Below, in pieces: positions 969-10,018 of a stretch of 11,860 bases of DNA; positions within the stretch are counted from its first letter, which is position 1, and each line of letters starts with the position of its first letter. The stretch lies in assembly GCA_020429485.1 (NCBI GenBank), contig JAGQLK010000020.1:1-11860 (forward strand). Direction: 5' to 3'. The DNA comes from Candidatus Dojkabacteria bacterium (lineage in GTDB: Bacteria; Patescibacteriota; Dojkabacteria; B142; OLB20). Position numbers and translations under genes: made by a program. The notes under the pieces are model-generated. The model searched no databases and had not been told where the DNA came from. It was given only the letters and a program-made list of their open reading frames with translations.

Positions 969-3575
969 CTATTTCTTTTCCTTCTTCTTTTTCTTCTTAT
1001 AGTAGGCAGCAAATAAGAATATAAGCACTATTACTAATATGACCAGACAGCAGCAAATAAAAAAGAAGTTTGAGCTTTCATTTGTTTGTTCAACAGTTAC
1101 CTCATCACCTGTCTCTGGCAAATCCATTAATTCAGGTTGGTTTTCTACCTGATCAATTATCATATCCTCTATTTCTTCTTGCATTTCATTCTGTACAGCA
1201 AGGTCTAGATCGTCCTCATCTGTACCACTAAGCAAACTTTTCAGTTCATCTGGGAAGTTTTCAATCCCAATTATGAAGAAAAGATTTCTAGTACCGGACA
1301 TATTACCTGCTTGATCTACAATATAATATTCAATCTCGTTGTAGGTCCTAGGTAGGCCTGGGTTTTCTATGACTACACTAAATATTCCCTCGCTATTAAC
1401 TTGGGATGAATACGTATTGCCCTGCCACATGAAATAAATTGTGCTATTAGGCTCTGCGTAGCCCTTGATGACAGGTGTCTCAGAGGTGAAATAATAAAAT
1501 AGTGAAGATTGGTTTGGCACATTTGTAATCATACCGATATCAGTGATTACTGGTTCTTCAGCTGTACGATCAATTTTTATAGCTACTTTTTTATAATGCT
1601 CTTGATAAGTGTATTTTATATCCGTATCAACTGCTCGAATATAAATATTGTAATTACCATCAGCAAGTCCTGAGATGTCACAGTCATAATCTTCGTTATT
1701 AGAATCAAATGTTCCATCTGTAGGAGAGCAAGCTTGCCAACTTCCTTGTGGATTATTGCTAGTACTCCATTGAACTAAATCAATGTCAGTAACAGATTCA
1801 GGAGCAGAGATATTTCCTGTGATATTAGTTTCATTATATTCATCTACAGCATCCGCGGTTATTGAATGTGGAAAATTATAAATAATCCAAAGCCTACCAT
1901 TATTGCTTCTCGAAAGTGAATCAGACTCATCCGCCCCAACAATGATATCTGCTCTGCCATCCTCATTTATGTCGGCTGTATCAAGAGTACTTACACCAAA
2001 GAATCTGAGTGACAAACTGCTGTTATTTCCGTCATAGCGATGTAAAATAGTAGATGGATTATTCAACCTATACCATAATCCTTTTTGAGAATAATCTCCT
2101 AGAATAGCCCCATCGACTATATACATAGTTCCACTATTATTGCCATATAAGTCTGTATGACCACCCACTATGTAATCATTATTTCCATCTCCATTCCAAT
2201 CTGCTGATCGTGCTCCTTGATAAATACCTAAGAGATCTCCTTGCGACTCTCCAACAAGCCTGACATTGAGATGATCTTGGAGATCACATGCCTTAGCTGG
2301 ACAAGCTCCACTATTTAGTAGATTTAGTACATTTTTCCCATAGATAATAAACATATTACCTACCTCAGGAACTGTTGGTGTATCTGACCTAAAAGAGCCA
2401 GTAGAGATGTCTAATATATTATCACCATCAATATCTAATATTGTAAAAGCGCTAAATCCAAGCCAAACTTCGCTTGTAGCATCTACTCCTGCGCCTTCAT
2501 TTTCAGGAGCATCTAAACGTAAATCATAGTTATTGTCGTCTGCAAGAGGATGGTGATTGCCAGTTCCAGTGTATCCAGAGAGCTGGTCATTTAATAAGAT
2601 ATAATGAGAGCCACTATCGGGTCTTGAGTTATAGTCTGTGCCAAAGCTTGTACTTATAAAGTCATCTTTTCCATCGGCATTGATATCATACGCAGCCATA
2701 CCAAAGGCACCATAGATATCAGAAGCATTAGCACCATCTATACGAACAGTATAGTTATTTGTATCACTAATCAAGAAGTCATTAGAACCAGGTCCAGCAG
2801 CTGCCATAGTAGCCATAAGGTCATCGTATAGTACAAATGTAGATCCTGAATCTATTATCGCAGCAGAGAATTGATCCTCACCATCATTGAATCTAGAACC
2901 GATGAATAGCTCATCAGAACCATTGTTGTTCATATCTCCAACAGCCAATCCTTGTCTTGCAAGTCGATCATTTGTATTTCCATAGATCATAAACGAATAG
3001 TTATTGCTGTCCGCAAGATCAAGATCATTACCTGTACCTGTCCAAGATGTTAATAGGTCATCATATATCACATATACTGCCCCAGAATTTCCTCCATTTG
3101 CATCAGATAACTGATCACCTATAACCAAATCTTTCTTGTTGTCTCCGTCAAAATCCCCCTGGAATTGCATCATGCCTTGACTACCGATTTCATCACCACT
3201 AAATTCACCCTCGAACTTTAAGTTATAGTGTGCAGGATTAGAAAGATCTAAGTCTGCTAGAGCTAGGTCTTCAAGTAATTCATTATAGATAATGTAAATG
3301 GCTCCATTGTTATTTCTGCTATGACTGTCATTGCGGTAAACAGAGATTATTAGATCAGCTTTGCCATCACTATTCATATCTTCAGTATCGAATGAAAAAC
3401 CAGACCATCCAATACCATCTCCAGATGCAGCTCCATGTATACGAATATTAGAGTTTGCATCGTCTTCGATAAGATATGAACTTATTAATGCATCTACAGC
3501 CGTGGAAAAAATGAAGGTAAGAATACCTGCTATGAATAATGTAGATAAATTAAAGAGGCTTACTCTAAATTTCAT
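969..3575 (-). CDS. Exported seven-repeat FG-GAP (integrin-like) protein with Ig-like domains and LPXTG-type tail
   Basis: An 868-aa exported protein. Residues 1-30 are a signal peptide or N-terminal anchor (basic start, hydrophobic core, V-D-A near 27-29). Seven Asp-rich calcium-loop motifs of the D-x-N/D-x-D/N-G/N type begin at residues 66, 141, 214, 297, 381, 459 and 535, spaced 73-84 apart, as in the FG-GAP repeats that build a seven-bladed propeller (integrin alpha family). Two Ig-like segments follow (about 578-670 and 672-768; D-G-N-Y-N-I-Y-I-R-A-V-D and D-Q-A-G-N-M-S are typical). An acidic stretch, LPETG (819-823), a hydrophobic helix (837-859, with CCC at 841-843) and a lysine tail (860-868) complete it. 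It is probably a cell-surface adhesin or receptor; the ligand is unknown. It lies 18 bp after the permease gene and is the only gene here with a clear AAGGAG site. Confidence 0.88.
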   Translation of the reverse strand: MKFRVSLFNLSTLFIAGILTFIFSTAVDALISSYLIEDDANSNIRIHGAASGDGIGWSGFSFDTEDMNSDGKADLIISVYRNDSHSRNNNGAIYIIYNELLEDLALADLDLSNPAHYNLKFEGEFSGDEIGSQGMMQFQGDFDGDNKKDLVIGDQLSDANGGNSGAVYVIYDDLLTSWTGTGNDLDLADSNNYSFMIYGNTNDRLARQGLAVGDMNNNGSDELFIGSRFNDGEDQFSAAIIDSGSTFVLYDDLMATMAAAGPGSNDFLISDTNNYTVRIDGANASDIYGAFGMAAYDINADGKDDFISTSFGTDYNSRPDSGSHYILLNDQLSGYTGTGNHHPLADDNNYDLRLDAPENEGAGVDATSEVWLGFSAFTILDIDGDNILDISTGSFRSDTPTVPEVGNMFIIYGKNVLNLLNSGACPAKACDLQDHLNVRLVGESQGDLLGIYQGARSADWNGDGNNDYIVGGHTDLYGNNSGTMYIVDGAILGDYSQKGLWYRLNNPSTILHRYDGNNSSLSLRFFGVSTLDTADINEDGRADIIVGADESDSLSRSNNGRLWIIYNFPHSITADAVDEYNETNITGNISAPESVTDIDLVQWSTSNNPQGSWQACSPTDGTFDSNNEDYDCDISGLADGNYNIYIRAVDTDIKYTYQEHYKKVAIKIDRTAEEPVITDIGMITNVPNQSSLFYYFTSETPVIKGYAEPNSTIYFMWQGNTYSSQVNSEGIFSVVIENPGLPRTYNEIEYYIVDQAGNMSGTRNLFFIIGIENFPDELKSLLSGTDEDDLDLAVQNEMQEEIEDMIIDQVENQPELMDLPETGDEVTVEQTNESSNFFFICCCLVILVIVLIFLFAAYYKKKKKKEKK
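1107..1121 (-). other. Candidate sortase recognition motif LPETG
   Basis: These codons encode residues 819-823 of the FG-GAP protein. LPETG followed by a hydrophobic helix and a lysine-rich end is the order of a Gram-positive-type cell-wall sorting signal. The gap between the motif and the helix is 13 polar residues, longer than usual, so processing by a sortase is plausible but unproven. No sortase gene is in the window. Confidence 0.5.
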
Positions 3576-5601: not shown

Positions 5602-5634
5602 AAAAAAACGACGTACAATAATTATACGTCGTTT
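5602..5634 (-). terminator. Intrinsic terminator after the membrane-protein cluster
   Basis: A perfect 10-bp inverted repeat (AAACGACGTA at 5606-5615 and its complement at 5625-5634) encloses a 9-nt loop. On the minus strand the hairpin runs into seven consecutive T residues (5608-5602, three within the arm). This is a standard Rho-independent terminator, placed 17 nt after the stop codon of the 270-aa gene and before the ABC ATPase gene. Confidence 0.85.
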
Positions 5635-5650
5635 GTGTTTTAATCACTTA

Positions 5651-6463
5651 CTAATTCTTTTCTATGCTTAAATTAGCGATAAATGCATCGCAAAGCGACT
5701 CACCATCATCCCCTTTCGGGATACAAGCCATACTACCTGACACTAATGTTCCAGTACCACATGGAGGTTCTTCCTCCCCAAATACAGATTGACATTTATT
5801 ATTTGCCTGGTAGTCATCTGTATATATATAAGTACCATCAGTATTCATAACCCTATAGACTAGACCCAAATACTCTGTTGCAAGTTCCCTGGAATCCACA
5901 TAGCTAAAATGTTGAGCTTCAGTTGATGGGAAATACCTAACATCAAAACTCTCAGAATTAAAGAAAATATAATATTCTGGAAGATTACATGTTTCATCAT
6001 CTAAATCCTCAATGATAGTCCCTAACGGAACAAAGCCTCTTAAAGTAGCTGTCGAAGGATTAGATGGACACCAGCTAACTGTAGTTTCAAACTCTACCCA
6101 ATTGTTTGGTAATCCAACAACATCTTCGTCATCAGATACTAAGTCTTGATCAGTATTATTTACCTCAGCTATCTCCTCAACTTCGGTAGGTTGGATAGTC
6201 GTTTCTACCTCTGGATCATCTGTGTTCATCTCCTCTGGCTCATCTGAACTCAACAGTAAGTATCCAACAATTCCACCCAAAATCAACACTAATACAAGAA
6301 GAAATAATATTAGCATCATGCTCATATTACTTTTCTTTGCTGTTGATACATTTACGGGGTTAGGCATCGTACTTGATCCAAGGGGTGCCTGTACTGGAGT
6401 ATCCACTGTATTGGCTTCTTGAGCAAATGGAGCTCCTTGGTTTGTTGTGCTGTTATCTTGCAT
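5651..6463 (-). CDS. Single-pass membrane protein, 270 aa, cysteine-containing ectodomain (unknown function)
   Basis: I do not recognise a named family. Residues 1-42 are polar and Q/N/T/P-rich, probably disordered and cytoplasmic. KKSN (43-46) precedes one transmembrane helix (about 48-72), giving an N-in, C-out orientation. An acidic linker (73-118) contains ETTIQPT. The ectodomain (about 119-270) has six cysteines (132, 159, 224, 235, 247, 258) and no others exist in the protein. Its second half, with C-x10-C ... PPCGTGTL ... C-x10-C and a final D-A-F-I-A-N-L-S-I, aligns with the end of the 248-aa protein encoded at 9272-10018. Its anchor, by contrast, is nearly identical to that of the adjacent 197-aa protein, so the gene looks like a mosaic. 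No lipobox or catalytic motif is visible. It is the last gene before the terminator, 22 bp after its neighbour. Confidence 0.8.
   Translation of the reverse strand: MQDNSTTNQGAPFAQEANTVDTPVQAPLGSSTMPNPVNVSTAKKSNMSMMLILFLLVLVLILGGIVGYLLLSSDEPEEMNTDDPEVETTIQPTEVEEIAEVNNTDQDLVSDDEDVVGLPNNWVEFETTVSWCPSNPSTATLRGFVPLGTIIEDLDDETCNLPEYYIFFNSESFDVRYFPSTEAQHFSYVDSRELATEYLGLVYRVMNTDGTYIYTDDYQANNKCQSVFGEEEPPCGTGTLVSGSMACIPKGDDGESLCDAFIANLSIEKN
6231..6370 (-). repeat. Direct repeat copy A: shared anchor-coding segment
   Basis: This 140-bp segment of the 270-aa gene aligns without gaps to 6862-7001 in the 197-aa gene (offset 631) with 9 differences by my count, about 94% identity. It encodes the membrane-proximal KKSN, the helix and the start of the acidic linker. 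Similarity continues more weakly toward both gene starts and is lost in the ectodomain-coding parts. Confidence 0.9.
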
Positions 6464-6485
6464 ATAACCATGAATAATAAATAAA

Positions 6486-7079
6486 CTATAAAGCTAGCAA
6501 CTCAAAATCTCCTTCAATAATGCAGTAACTTGTTCCTGCAGCTACACCATCATCAGTACATTCGTTAAAGCTAAGATTATACATGCTTCCGAGTACGACC
6601 TTAGATAGAACATCATTGTCAATTGCATATATAGAACAACTAGCTAGTTCTTGATTGCATACCTTAAATCCCACATAGTTACTTGGATCTGGTTCATAAC
6701 TTACAGCTTGTACTTGGTAACTTTGATCATATGATATTTCCTCAACATCGTTAACTGGCTCATCTGAGCTTGATGGCTCAACTGTGACTTCAACTTGATC
6801 TACGACTTCTTCCACCGTAGGCTCAACAGTTGTTTCTATTTCCGGTTCATCATTATTTATTTCCTCTGGTTCATCTGAGCTCAACAGTAAGTATCCAACA
6901 ATTCCACCCAAAAGCAAAACTAATACAAGAAGAAATAATATTACCATCATACTCATATTACTTTTCTTTGCTGTTGATACATTTACAGCTTTAGGCATCG
7001 TGTTTGATTCAACCGGTGCCTGCACTTGAGTATTCATTATAGGCTCTCCTTGGGTTGGTGTGTTGTTATCTTGCATCAT
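6486..7079 (-). CDS. Single-pass membrane protein, 197 aa, small four-cysteine ectodomain (unknown function)
   Basis: Unrecognised protein. The polar N-terminus (1-37) is followed by KKSN (38-41), a transmembrane helix (about 42-67), an acidic linker (68-118) with ETTVEPT (82-88), and a short ectodomain (about 119-197) with four cysteines (141, 148, 174, 186). The ectodomain ends in beta-like strands (L-G-S-M-Y-N-L-S-F ... S-Y-C-I-I-E-G-D-F-E-L-L), which could form a small beta-barrel; that is a guess. It starts with two consecutive ATG codons. Alignment with the paralogue at 5651-6463, which begins M-Q-D-N, favours the second one (7076). The gene lies 19 bp after the 324-aa gene and 22 bp before the 270-aa gene. 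Membrane topology is the firm part of this call. Confidence 0.78.
   Translation of the reverse strand: MMQDNNTPTQGEPIMNTQVQAPVESNTMPKAVNVSTAKKSNMSMMVILFLLVLVLLLGGIVGYLLLSSDEPEEINNDEPEIETTVEPTVEEVVDQVEVTVEPSSSDEPVNDVEEISYDQSYQVQAVSYEPDPSNYVGFKVCNQELASCSIYAIDNDVLSKVVLGSMYNLSFNECTDDGVAAGTSYCIIEGDFELLAL
6862..7001 (-). repeat. Direct repeat copy B: shared anchor-coding segment
   Basis: Partner of the repeat at 6231-6370 (9 differences over 140 bp, no gaps). It encodes the anchor helix and flanks of the 197-aa protein. The close DNA identity, including synonymous positions, points to recent duplication or gene conversion. Confidence 0.9.
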
Positions 7080-7098
7080 AGTTATTTATTTAATAATT

Positions 7099-8073
7099 TT
7101 ATAGTGACTCTACAGAAGATATTATTTCAGATATCTTATGAAGCTGTTCAAGTGTTAACTTTCTTTCTATTACTAACTCTCCCTCAAAATCATCACAAGA
7201 ATCCTGGAATACACAGTATCCATTTTCTTCACAGAAAGCCTGATCATATGGGCCATTTTCTTGTGAGCTGCAGAATGTTGATTGAGTTGAAAGATCGTTA
7301 TAGATTTCAACTATTACTCCTCCAGCATTGTATTCTATGATATTTGAGAAATCACCAGCTCCAGCAAATCCATCACCATAGTAGTAGCTGGTACCTGGAT
7401 ACTCATTGCCAGCAAAAGTAATACTTTGTAAAAACTCTAAGTCACCTGTAAGGTCTGCTACTCCCCAACCTGCAGTTGCATAATCAATCTTTTCAGTTTT
7501 GAAGCAAAGAACAGTCTTCTCTATCGGATCCTCATTACCAACTTGATCCAACACTTGAGTCTTTAAACATGTTGAGTCAGAGTTATTATTATCTATAGTG
7601 AATTCATCAGAATAACTAAATCTAGTTCCAAAGTTATTATCAACGTATTCATTTAGAACTACAGTTGAAGTTGGTTCCACTGTTGGCTCGATATCAGGCG
7701 TCTCGGTGACTTCTATTGTCGGCTCCACCGTATCGTCTGTATCGCTTTCTTCCATTGGTCTTGTCAGCAACCAGACTGATACTGCACCAAGAATTAACGC
7801 AATCAGTAGTAGCACTAAAAGAATAATGATATTCTTATTAGACTTGTGTGGTTTTGGACTTTCTGTTGAAGTATTAGCTACAGGTGTTTCTTTTTGCATA
7901 GCTCCTTCAACTTGTTGCGTTTCAGGCGCAACTGCTGGCTGCACATCTGATTGCATCATATTATCAGTACTTTGTGCTGGCTGCATTGTTTCTGCAGGCA
8001 TCACGGTTGAATCATTGGATTGCATCATTTGATCTGGCATAGATTCAGGATTAGTTTGTGTATTTTCGTCCAT
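7099..8073 (-). CDS. Single-pass membrane protein, 324 aa, six-cysteine ectodomain (unknown function)
   Basis: I chose ATG 8073; a GTG two codons upstream (8079) would give 326 aa, the numbering used here. Residues 1-78 are a long Met/Gln/Pro-rich, probably disordered cytoplasmic tail with recurring M-M-Q-S. K-x-H-K-S-N-K precedes a helix at about 83-106. The acidic linker (107-141) repeats the E-P-T motif (VEPT at 118-121 and 134-137). The ectodomain (about 142-326) has six cysteines (171, 192, 270, 283, 289, 295). F-G-T-R-F-S-Y-S-D-E-F-T-I near its start and the final helix L-x-Q-L-H-K-I-S-E-I-I-S-S recall PsbP/MOG1-like extracytoplasmic domains, but this is only a resemblance. The plan matches the other three anchored proteins here, though the anchor sequence is divergent. 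It follows the rpe-like gene after a 66-bp gap. Confidence 0.8.
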   Translation of the reverse strand: MDENTQTNPESMPDQMMQSNDSTVMPAETMQPAQSTDNMMQSDVQPAVAPETQQVEGAMQKETPVANTSTESPKPHKSNKNIIILLVLLLIALILGAVSVWLLTRPMEESDTDDTVEPTIEVTETPDIEPTVEPTSTVVLNEYVDNNFGTRFSYSDEFTIDNNNSDSTCLKTQVLDQVGNEDPIEKTVLCFKTEKIDYATAGWGVADLTGDLEFLQSITFAGNEYPGTSYYYGDGFAGAGDFSNIIEYNAGGVIVEIYNDLSTQSTFCSSQENGPYDQAFCEENGYCVFQDSCDDFEGELVIERKLTLEQLHKISEIISSVESL

Positions 8074-8124
8074 ATTCACTTTTTATTAATTAGATTATTT
8101 TATTAAACACTTTTCTAGCCTAAA

Positions 8125-9271: not shown

Positions 9272-10018
9272 TTAGTTACTAATAATAGAAATATCCTTCA
9301 TTATTGTATCGCACTGAGCAATACCTTCTGCTGTCTCACTGCTACAATATACATTCAGAATCAAATTATACTGCTCTACGAAAAGCACATCGCTACCGCA
9401 AGGTGCTGGTGGATTACCATAAACCGGTGCATTACAGAAATCTTCTTCTTCAAAAAACTGATCTTTGTTTACATACTTATATCTACTTTCATTCGCTGTT
9501 CGTATTCTTAACATATCAATACTTGTGTCATCTATATCTACTCTTTCCTCGTATGGGCCTACATTACCTTCATAGAACATAGTAAATGCTAGTGAGTAAT
9601 CATCTCCTGTTAATGTCACAGTATTAATTTCTGTATCCTCTGTATTATCTAATTTTGTTCCTATTGGCATCATTCCAGTAACAGTAGCACTCTGACGATT
9701 AGCACCCGATCCAAAATATAACTCAAAGCTGAACTCCTTGTTATCACTTGCCTCTTGTGCAGGTTCTACTTCATCAGTAGTATCAGTGACTTCATTATTT
9801 ATTGTAGGTTCTACTATAGCATCATCTGGTACTGCTGGATCTACTATAACTTGATCATTTAAGAAAAAGACAGCAGCAACAAATATACCAAGACAACCAA
9901 AAACTACAAATAAAAGTAGAACAATAAACATATTATTTTTCTTCGAATGCACCTCTTCAGGTAAAAGATTCGATTCTGGTGTGGGAGTTACAGTATTGTT
10001 TTGCTGGGGAGTTTCCAT
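9272..10018 (-). CDS. Single-pass membrane protein, 248 aa, four-cysteine ectodomain (unknown function)
   Basis: Unrecognised protein with the same plan as the three anchored proteins at 5651-8073. It has a polar N-terminus (1-25), S-K-K-N-N (25-29), a transmembrane helix (about 30-53), an acidic linker with IVEPTINNEV (68-77), and an ectodomain (about 94-248) with cysteines at 195, 207, 225 and 236. SATVTGMMPIGTKL (110-123) aligns with TATLRGFVPLGTII of the 270-aa protein. C-x11-C ending PAPCGSDVL and the last C-x10-C followed by D-T-I-M-K-D-I-S-I-I also align with it, so the two ectodomains are homologous. The anchor is much less similar. There is no lipobox or enzyme motif. It sits between elp3 and rpiB, and rpiB follows after 2 bp, so the membrane protein and the isomerase are co-transcribed. 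Confidence 0.8.
   Translation of the reverse strand: METPQQNNTVTPTPESNLLPEEVHSKKNNMFIVLLLFVVFGCLGIFVAAVFFLNDQVIVDPAVPDDAIVEPTINNEVTDTTDEVEPAQEASDNKEFSFELYFGSGANRQSATVTGMMPIGTKLDNTEDTEINTVTLTGDDYSLAFTMFYEGNVGPYEERVDIDDTSIDMLRIRTANESRYKYVNKDQFFEEEDFCNAPVYGNPPAPCGSDVLFVEQYNLILNVYCSSETAEGIAQCDTIMKDISIISN

What the first reader, a model, noticed from the sequence alone, without database searches (positions are those of the whole stretch)
5651..7079. Adjacent membrane proteins share one anchor but carry unrelated ectodomains
The 197- and 270-aa genes match at 131 of 140 bases across the anchor-coding segment (6231-6370 against 6862-7001), and their N-termini also align. Past the E-x-E/V-E-T-T-x-x-P-T linker the proteins show no similarity: a short four-cysteine domain in one, a longer six-cysteine domain in the other. 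High DNA identity confined to the 5' part suggests recombination, gene conversion or 3' cassette replacement that puts new surface domains on a fixed anchor. This could be a small diversification system for surface display.
Basis: partly seen in the sequence, partly recalled or inferred. Interest (0 to 1): 0.75.

Follow-up and report, generated by a model that had tools for sequence, protein, structure and literature searches.

The report
Neighbouring membrane genes sharing an anchor
Two side-by-side genes of an uncultured dwarf bacterium carry nearly the same membrane anchor in front of unrelated outer domains, apparently because the anchor stretch was copied between them while the outer domains stayed put, so it looks like ordinary gene conversion and old domain shuffling, not an active surface-switching system.

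Summary
The 140-bp anchor segments of the 270-aa (p270) and 197-aa (p197) genes match at 131 of 140 bases, and their ectodomains are unrelated. The class includes Candidatus Dojkabacteria.

One near relative of each gene was found: P0002 (88% to p270) and P0004 (89% to p197; last 145 residues identical). Each keeps the same ectodomain. Both ectodomain families occur in other genera; p270's also in window gene p248. The anchor is the part that moved: in the TM tract p270 resembles its neighbour more than its orthologue, outside it the reverse (29 sites; permutation p 7e-4). Synonymous differences are few in N-terminal and anchor codons, many in the linker (8/57 vs 7/11).

So: an old ectodomain replacement at the linker, then conversion of the anchor segment between neighbours. 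The 236-bp anchor has two copies, both here, in 85 class genomes (no other genome of this genus was held), and no reverse transcriptase was found. Another lineage's p197-domain quartet also shows anchor/ectodomain incongruence. DNA of P0002 and P0004 was not available.

The parts
5651..6463 (-). p270: predicted type II membrane protein; polar N-terminus, TM helix, E/T/P linker, six-Cys ectodomain (family shared with p248)
   Evidence: ORF; homologues; AF2 TM helix at residues 47-71, ectodomain low confidence
6486..7079 (-). p197: predicted type II membrane protein; same anchor, four-Cys small all-beta ectodomain
   Evidence: ORF; homologues; AF2 ectodomain blocks mostly above 80 pLDDT, seven strands, OB-like
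6231..6370 (-). anchor-coding segment of p270 (the near-identical tract, mainly the TM)
   Evidence: 131/140 to 6862-7001; codon analysis
6862..7001 (-). anchor-coding segment of p197
7099..8079 (-). p326: third member of the anchored array, a more diverged anchor and a different ectodomain
   Evidence: ORF; anchor 19/67 to p197 (z 6.6); anchor-profile hit (p326 is one of the profile's rows)
9272..10018 (-). p248: anchored protein between rpiB and Elp3, ectodomain related to p270's, a different anchor
5606..5634 (-). likely intrinsic terminator after p270 (13-bp stem, T-rich tail)
   Evidence: z -2.95; terminator-like sites in the scanned region are no more than chance (2 found, 1.9 expected)
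5651..8079 (-). three-gene anchored array p326-p197-p270, absent between rpe and the ABC ATPase in two family relatives of one genus
   Evidence: L120 of G002, L121 of G005

Best explanation
p197 and p270 are neighbouring genes for single-pass (signal-anchor, N-in) extracytoplasmic proteins. Their 5' halves (N-terminus, TM, start of linker) descend from a local duplication, and one copy long ago took on an ectodomain of another family by a join at the linker. Later, after the split from near relatives, the TM-coding tract (about 130 bp) was copied between the two neighbours by ordinary homologous recombination (gene conversion). The ectodomains were not exchanged. SHOWN: the tract and its limits; ectodomains unrelated by sequence; the ectodomain kept in the one near relative found of each gene; at protein level, grouping by neighbour, not by orthologue, inside the tract only; no multi-copy cassette in the genomes held. 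INFERRED: conversion as the process, its direction, membrane topology, and the order of events. Function (inferred): extracytoplasmic envelope domains held on a tether; the p197 domain predicts as a small OB-like barrel.
For: TM identity: p270 to p197 29/31, p270 to orthologue 22/31, while N-terminal identity is 22/35 against 38/41. Synonymous differences in conserved codons: 8/57 in N-terminus plus anchor, 7/11 in linker (Fisher p 0.001); third positions 36/41 anchor, 7/23 linker (p 5e-6). P0002 and P0004 keep full-length ectodomains (142/151 identical over p270 residues 120-270, and the last 145 residues of p197 identical). The three genes are an insertion between rpe and the ABC ATPase relative to G002 and G005, or were lost there. 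Separate quartet P0006-P0009: 11 of 11 anchor sites support one pairing, 4 of 5 linker+ectodomain sites another and 1 the third (Fisher p 7e-4).
Against: Only proteins, not DNA, were at hand for P0002 and P0004. TM residues L/V/I/F change back and forth easily, so the site patterns could partly be convergence. That P0002 and P0004 come from one lineage is unproven. P0004 rests on a 647-bp contig and could be an assembly chimera; P0006 and P0008 of the second quartet also lie on short contigs (1,262 and 964 bp). dS of N-terminus (0.37, bootstrap 0.14-0.76) and anchor (0.21, 0.04-0.52) are not distinguishable, so within the window alone one duplication of the whole 5' part would do. The strict four-way test has only 3 neighbour-type sites in the TM. 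For p197 the preference is weaker: in columns 43-79 it matches p270 at 4 and P0004 at 1 site.
Confidence: 0.65

Rival explanations
1. A recent tandem partial duplication of the 5' part alone: the whole N-terminus plus anchor was duplicated once, recently, and joined to another ectodomain; the N-terminus then diverged faster because it is disordered. No later conversion.
For: dS of N-terminus and anchor overlap; about 20 AT-rich bases upstream align loosely; N-terminal differences are mostly amino-acid changing (17 nt differences in changed codons, 3 in identical-aa codons).
Against: Orthologues P0002 and P0004 already have gene-specific N-termini and linkers, so the duplication predates that split, yet the TM tract is more alike between neighbours than between orthologues. 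Linker codons are far more diverged at silent sites while still alike in protein.
Confidence: 0.2
2. An active diversification system that puts new ectodomains on a fixed anchor.
For: Shared anchor with unrelated ectodomains; a further adjacent pair with shared anchor and dissimilar ectodomains in G078; a sharp break between P0003 and P0004 in the TM (16 differences in the first 52 aligned residues plus a 6-residue gap, 0 in the last 145).
Against: The ectodomains are kept in the one near relative of each; two anchor copies only in 85 class genomes, none other of this genus; no reverse transcriptase found; no inverted repeats of at least 25 bp in the window.
Confidence: 0.05
3. Constraint or convergence: the TM is conserved because it binds a partner or export machinery, without recombination.
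For: TM-tract dN is much lower than N-terminal dN (0.02 against 0.22).
Against: Orthologues differ at 9 of 31 TM residues, so this TM is not strongly constrained; third positions are also alike (36/41), which convergence at protein level does not give.
Confidence: 0.05

Closest known systems
Segmental gene conversion in bacterial antigen families (review PMC4534519; passages seen)
   Same: A short tract is copied between related genes and the rest stays distinct.
   Different: Here the homogenised part is the membrane anchor and the exposed domains are unrelated and kept; no donor pseudogenes or expression site seen in the window.
Mycoplasma Vpma/Vsp variable lipoproteins (PMC2268961; abstract and passages seen)
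   Same: 5' region and signal peptide conserved among neighbouring surface-protein genes, the rest in part unique.
   Different: Those are multigene loci switched by a site-specific recombinase (Xer1) through inversions; here two direct copies, no inverted repeats of 25 bp or more, and no recombinase among the 8 of 11 window genes scanned.
Hypervariable PTD-repeat protein of a Gracilibacterium, another CPR bacterium (PMC6851277; abstract and passages seen)
   Same: A predicted single N-terminal TM with the rest outside, in a CPR bacterium, and local DNA variation.
   Different: There a repeat inside one gene varies; here whole domains differ between neighbours and the anchor is alike.
Ordinary domain shuffling of type II (signal-anchor) proteins (general knowledge)
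   Same: The same ectodomain families occur behind other anchors in other genera.
   Different: Here the shuffled join is seen together with a near-identical neighbouring anchor.

Membership tests
Gene conversion between neighbouring paralogues | A tract more alike between paralogues than between orthologues, with flanks the other way round | tested here: met
   (protein level only, one orthologue)
Gene conversion between neighbouring paralogues | Silent sites in the tract less diverged than in flanking homologous sequence | tested here: inconclusive
   3' flank yes (8/57 against 7/11, p 0.001); 5' flank not distinguishable (dS 0.37 against 0.21, overlapping)
Diversity-generating retroelement | Reverse transcriptase in the genome | tested here: not met
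   PF00078: 0 matches in G000 (77% complete); the same search rang in 3 of 14 control genomes
Invertible (Vpma/shufflon-like) phase-variation locus | Inverted repeats at the switching genes | tested here: not met
   0 inverted pairs of at least 25 bp in the window; shorter ones not tested
Invertible (Vpma/shufflon-like) phase-variation locus | Site-specific recombinase gene beside the locus | tested here: inconclusive
   no recombinase among the 8 window proteins scanned with Pfam; 3 of the 11 main genes were not scanned, and the contig is only 11.9 kb
3' cassette replacement system | Several loci or strains with one anchor and different 3' ends | tested here: not met
   236-bp anchor: 2 places, both in the window, plus one 34-bp match in G028, in 85 genomes of which none other is of this genus; P0002 and P0004 keep their 3' ends
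OB-fold domain (p197 ectodomain) | Small beta-barrel fold | tested here: inconclusive

The most novel reading that the evidence does not exclude
In Dojkabacteria the membrane anchor, not the exposed domain, is the mobile module: recombination with breakpoints at or just past the TM repeatedly swaps or homogenises anchors under stable ectodomains, between neighbouring genes and between strains, so that a new ectodomain can pick up a locally working export anchor. Three signs point this way: the window pair, the P0003/P0004 break inside the TM, and the P0006-P0009 quartet.
Probability: 0.25. Interest if true: 0.6.

Novelty: new member of a known kind. Interest (0 to 1): 0.38.

Why it matters
It shows how envelope proteins of uncultured, reduced-genome bacteria may be put together: old ectodomain families on interchangeable tethers, with anchors traded by homologous recombination. 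It also warns that near-identical anchors beside unrelated domains need not mean a switching system. If anchor trading is general, signal anchors would mislead orthology calls in these genomes.

Tried and rejected
Diversity-generating retroelement: no reverse transcriptase found in G000. Invertible cassette: no inverted repeats of 25 bp or more. Viral relatives: scans of viral contigs with p197 and with p270 confirmed none. Named genomes: a scan with p197 confirmed none (records of this genome or very near ones may be left out there); a scan with profile A4 gave 3 loci. Pfam gives nothing above cut-off for p270, p197, p326 or p248; NCBIfam hits (FliL, EbpS and others) lie mostly on the anchor and linker and are below cut-off. 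The G011:C17 pair (L089) first looked like a second clean case, but both ectodomains start with a similar GW...ISF..P..W motif (E 0.15), so I do not count it as unrelated. The G002:C6 pair (L094) shares anchor and ectodomain: plain tandem duplicates. A search of 8 genomes of the G027 family with whole P0008, to look for a donor of its anchor type, found only the one orthologue in G027. The p270 ectodomain model is too weak to use (mean pLDDT 51.5), so no fold search was run with it. In VIA-align rows, families not listed are not excluded.

Literature: no paper in the held library has both 'Dojkabacteria' and 'gene conversion'. The listings (20 of 24 papers; 10 of 23; 6 of 6; 10 of 1,526) showed no title or abstract start on anchor exchange in these bacteria; this is not proof that none is in print.

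Full report
What is there. The window is contig C122 of a 1.29-Mb, 246-contig, 77%-complete genome. A same-class relative that also carries the p270-type ectodomain is recorded as Candidatus Dojkabacteria (L125), and two p197-ectodomain proteins that bear a name (P0005, P0009) are labelled Patescibacteria group bacterium. Four genes on the minus strand encode single-pass proteins with a polar N-terminus, one TM helix, an acidic or E/T/P-rich linker and a C-terminal domain: p326, p197 and p270 in a row, and p248 between rpiB and Elp3. The names Elp3 (radical SAM plus acetyltransferase), rpe and FtsX-type permease rest on Pfam domains; rpiB, Tkt and ABC ATPase are my reading of the sequences. 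Gaps of 19 and 22 bp separate p326, p197 and p270 (coordinates), and a likely terminator follows p270 (5606-5634), although terminator-like sites in that scan are no more frequent than in shuffles.

The observation. The anchor repeat is real: 131 of 140 bp, part of an 84% block of 236 bp. Ectodomains are unrelated by BLASTP and by profile comparison (0.3%). In predicted structure p197's is a small all-beta barrel with good confidence; p270's model is poor, so a structural comparison of the two is not decisive.

The ectodomains are old and kept. P0002 is 88% identical to p270 over its full length and P0004 is 89% identical to p197. Over residues 120-270, p270 and P0002 agree at 142 of 151. For p197 and P0004 the last 145 residues are identical, and all 16 substitutions lie among the first 52 aligned residues (Fisher 8e-11, which replaces a miscount). 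P0004 comes from a 647-bp contig, so an assembly chimera is possible. In a search of 85 class genomes with profile A2, matches reaching the p197 ectodomain came, besides the window, from G018 and G027 (both rows of the profile), G070 (E 4e-32) and a short one in G024:C42. With profile A3, matches reaching the p270 ectodomain came from 12 other genomes by my reading of the hit table (G001, G002, G005, G007, G015, G018, G024, G027, G045, G053, G057, G078), not counting partial ones in G010, G014 and G070; G018 and G024 are rows of the profile. Most remaining matches cover only the anchor. The anchors that I read (G002, G007, G018, G024, G027, G057, G078) differ from the window's, and the window's anchor DNA is in none of the others. 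p248 carries a relative of the p270 ectodomain in the same window (E 8e-6) on a different anchor.

The anchor is what moved. Seen from p197, columns 43-79 have 4 sites for the neighbour and 1 for P0004, columns 80-100 have 0 and 11, columns 2-42 have 5 and 7. In strict four-way terms the TM has 3 sites grouping p270+p197 against P0002+P0004 and none grouping by orthology. At DNA level third positions agree at 23/31, 36/41 and 7/23 in N-terminus, anchor and linker; anchor against linker p 5e-6, N-terminus against anchor p 0.22. So the 3' limit of the block, just past the TM, is clear, while the 5' limit rests on the orthologue comparison and not on silent sites.

Is it wider? In 21 stretches chosen because they held hits (window plus 20, so not an unbiased sample), 17 adjacent same-strand pairs of candidate type II proteins, picked by a crude hydrophobicity filter, were compared. 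Strongly similar anchors (z above 20) occurred in three: the window pair, G011:C17 (40/73 aa) and G078:C49 (27/56 aa). The G078 ectodomains show no similarity beyond chance (E 0.14); the G011 pair share a short motif (E 0.15) and may be related. A fourth pair, in G002:C6 (z 18.9), shares the ectodomain too. In both G pairs silent sites in the TM are more diverged than in the window. In P0006-P0009, a p197-ectodomain quartet from another lineage, 11 anchor sites support 6+7 against 8+9 and none another split, while in linker plus ectodomain 4 sites support 6+8 against 7+9, one the third split and none the first. That points to recombination with the break past the TM, between residues 27 and 53; P0006 and P0008 are on short contigs, so chimeras are not excluded.

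Locus history. In G002:C4 and G005:C81, two genomes of one genus in this family, the order is Elp3, rpe, ABC ATPase, FtsX permease, with no anchored gene between rpe and the ATPase (91 bp from the rpe stop to the ATPase start in G002 and 90 bp in G005; from the coordinates). In the window 2.4 kb with p326, p197 and p270 sits there. In G003:C25 rpiB and rpe follow Elp3, with a 311-aa protein in the slot of p248. So the array was gained here or lost in those relatives.

Against a system. The 236-bp anchor occurs twice in 85 genomes, both in the window; the only other match is 34 bp in G028. No other genome of this genus was among the 85. In the own genome an anchor profile gives 15 matches at E up to 1: its five rows (four window genes and one on C11) and ten weaker ones, four of these at E 0.001 or better. 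No reverse transcriptase was found, and no inverted repeats of 25 bp or more.

Verdict. A real mosaic with ordinary causes: old joining of different ectodomains to a duplicated 5' half, then conversion of the TM tract between neighbours. The bolder reading, that anchors are the exchanged module in this lineage, is open and testable.

Noticed in passing
P0006-P0009: Two anchor types cut across two ectodomain types in a p197-domain family of another lineage; anchor and ectodomain site patterns disagree.
   Followed up: partly
window 5651-8079: The three-gene anchored array lies between rpe and an ABC ATPase that are direct neighbours in G002 and G005.
   Followed up: yes
window 9272-10018: p248, between rpiB and Elp3, has a p270-type ectodomain on a different anchor; in G003 this slot holds a 311-aa protein with a hydrophobic N-terminus that tblastn did not match to p248.
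   Followed up: partly
window 969-3575: 868-aa FG-GAP repeat protein with a C-terminal TM and a lysine-rich tail, next to the FtsX-type permease.
   Followed up: no
L094 1-3733 (G002:C6): Two tandem genes of 544 aa (cut by the end of the stretch) and 693 aa with similar anchor and ectodomain (259/537 identical), plain tandem duplicates.
   Followed up: no
L091 7216-10842 and L095 4464-7054: Arrays of candidate type II proteins with different ectodomains in G024 and G018, partly in the same order.
   Followed up: no
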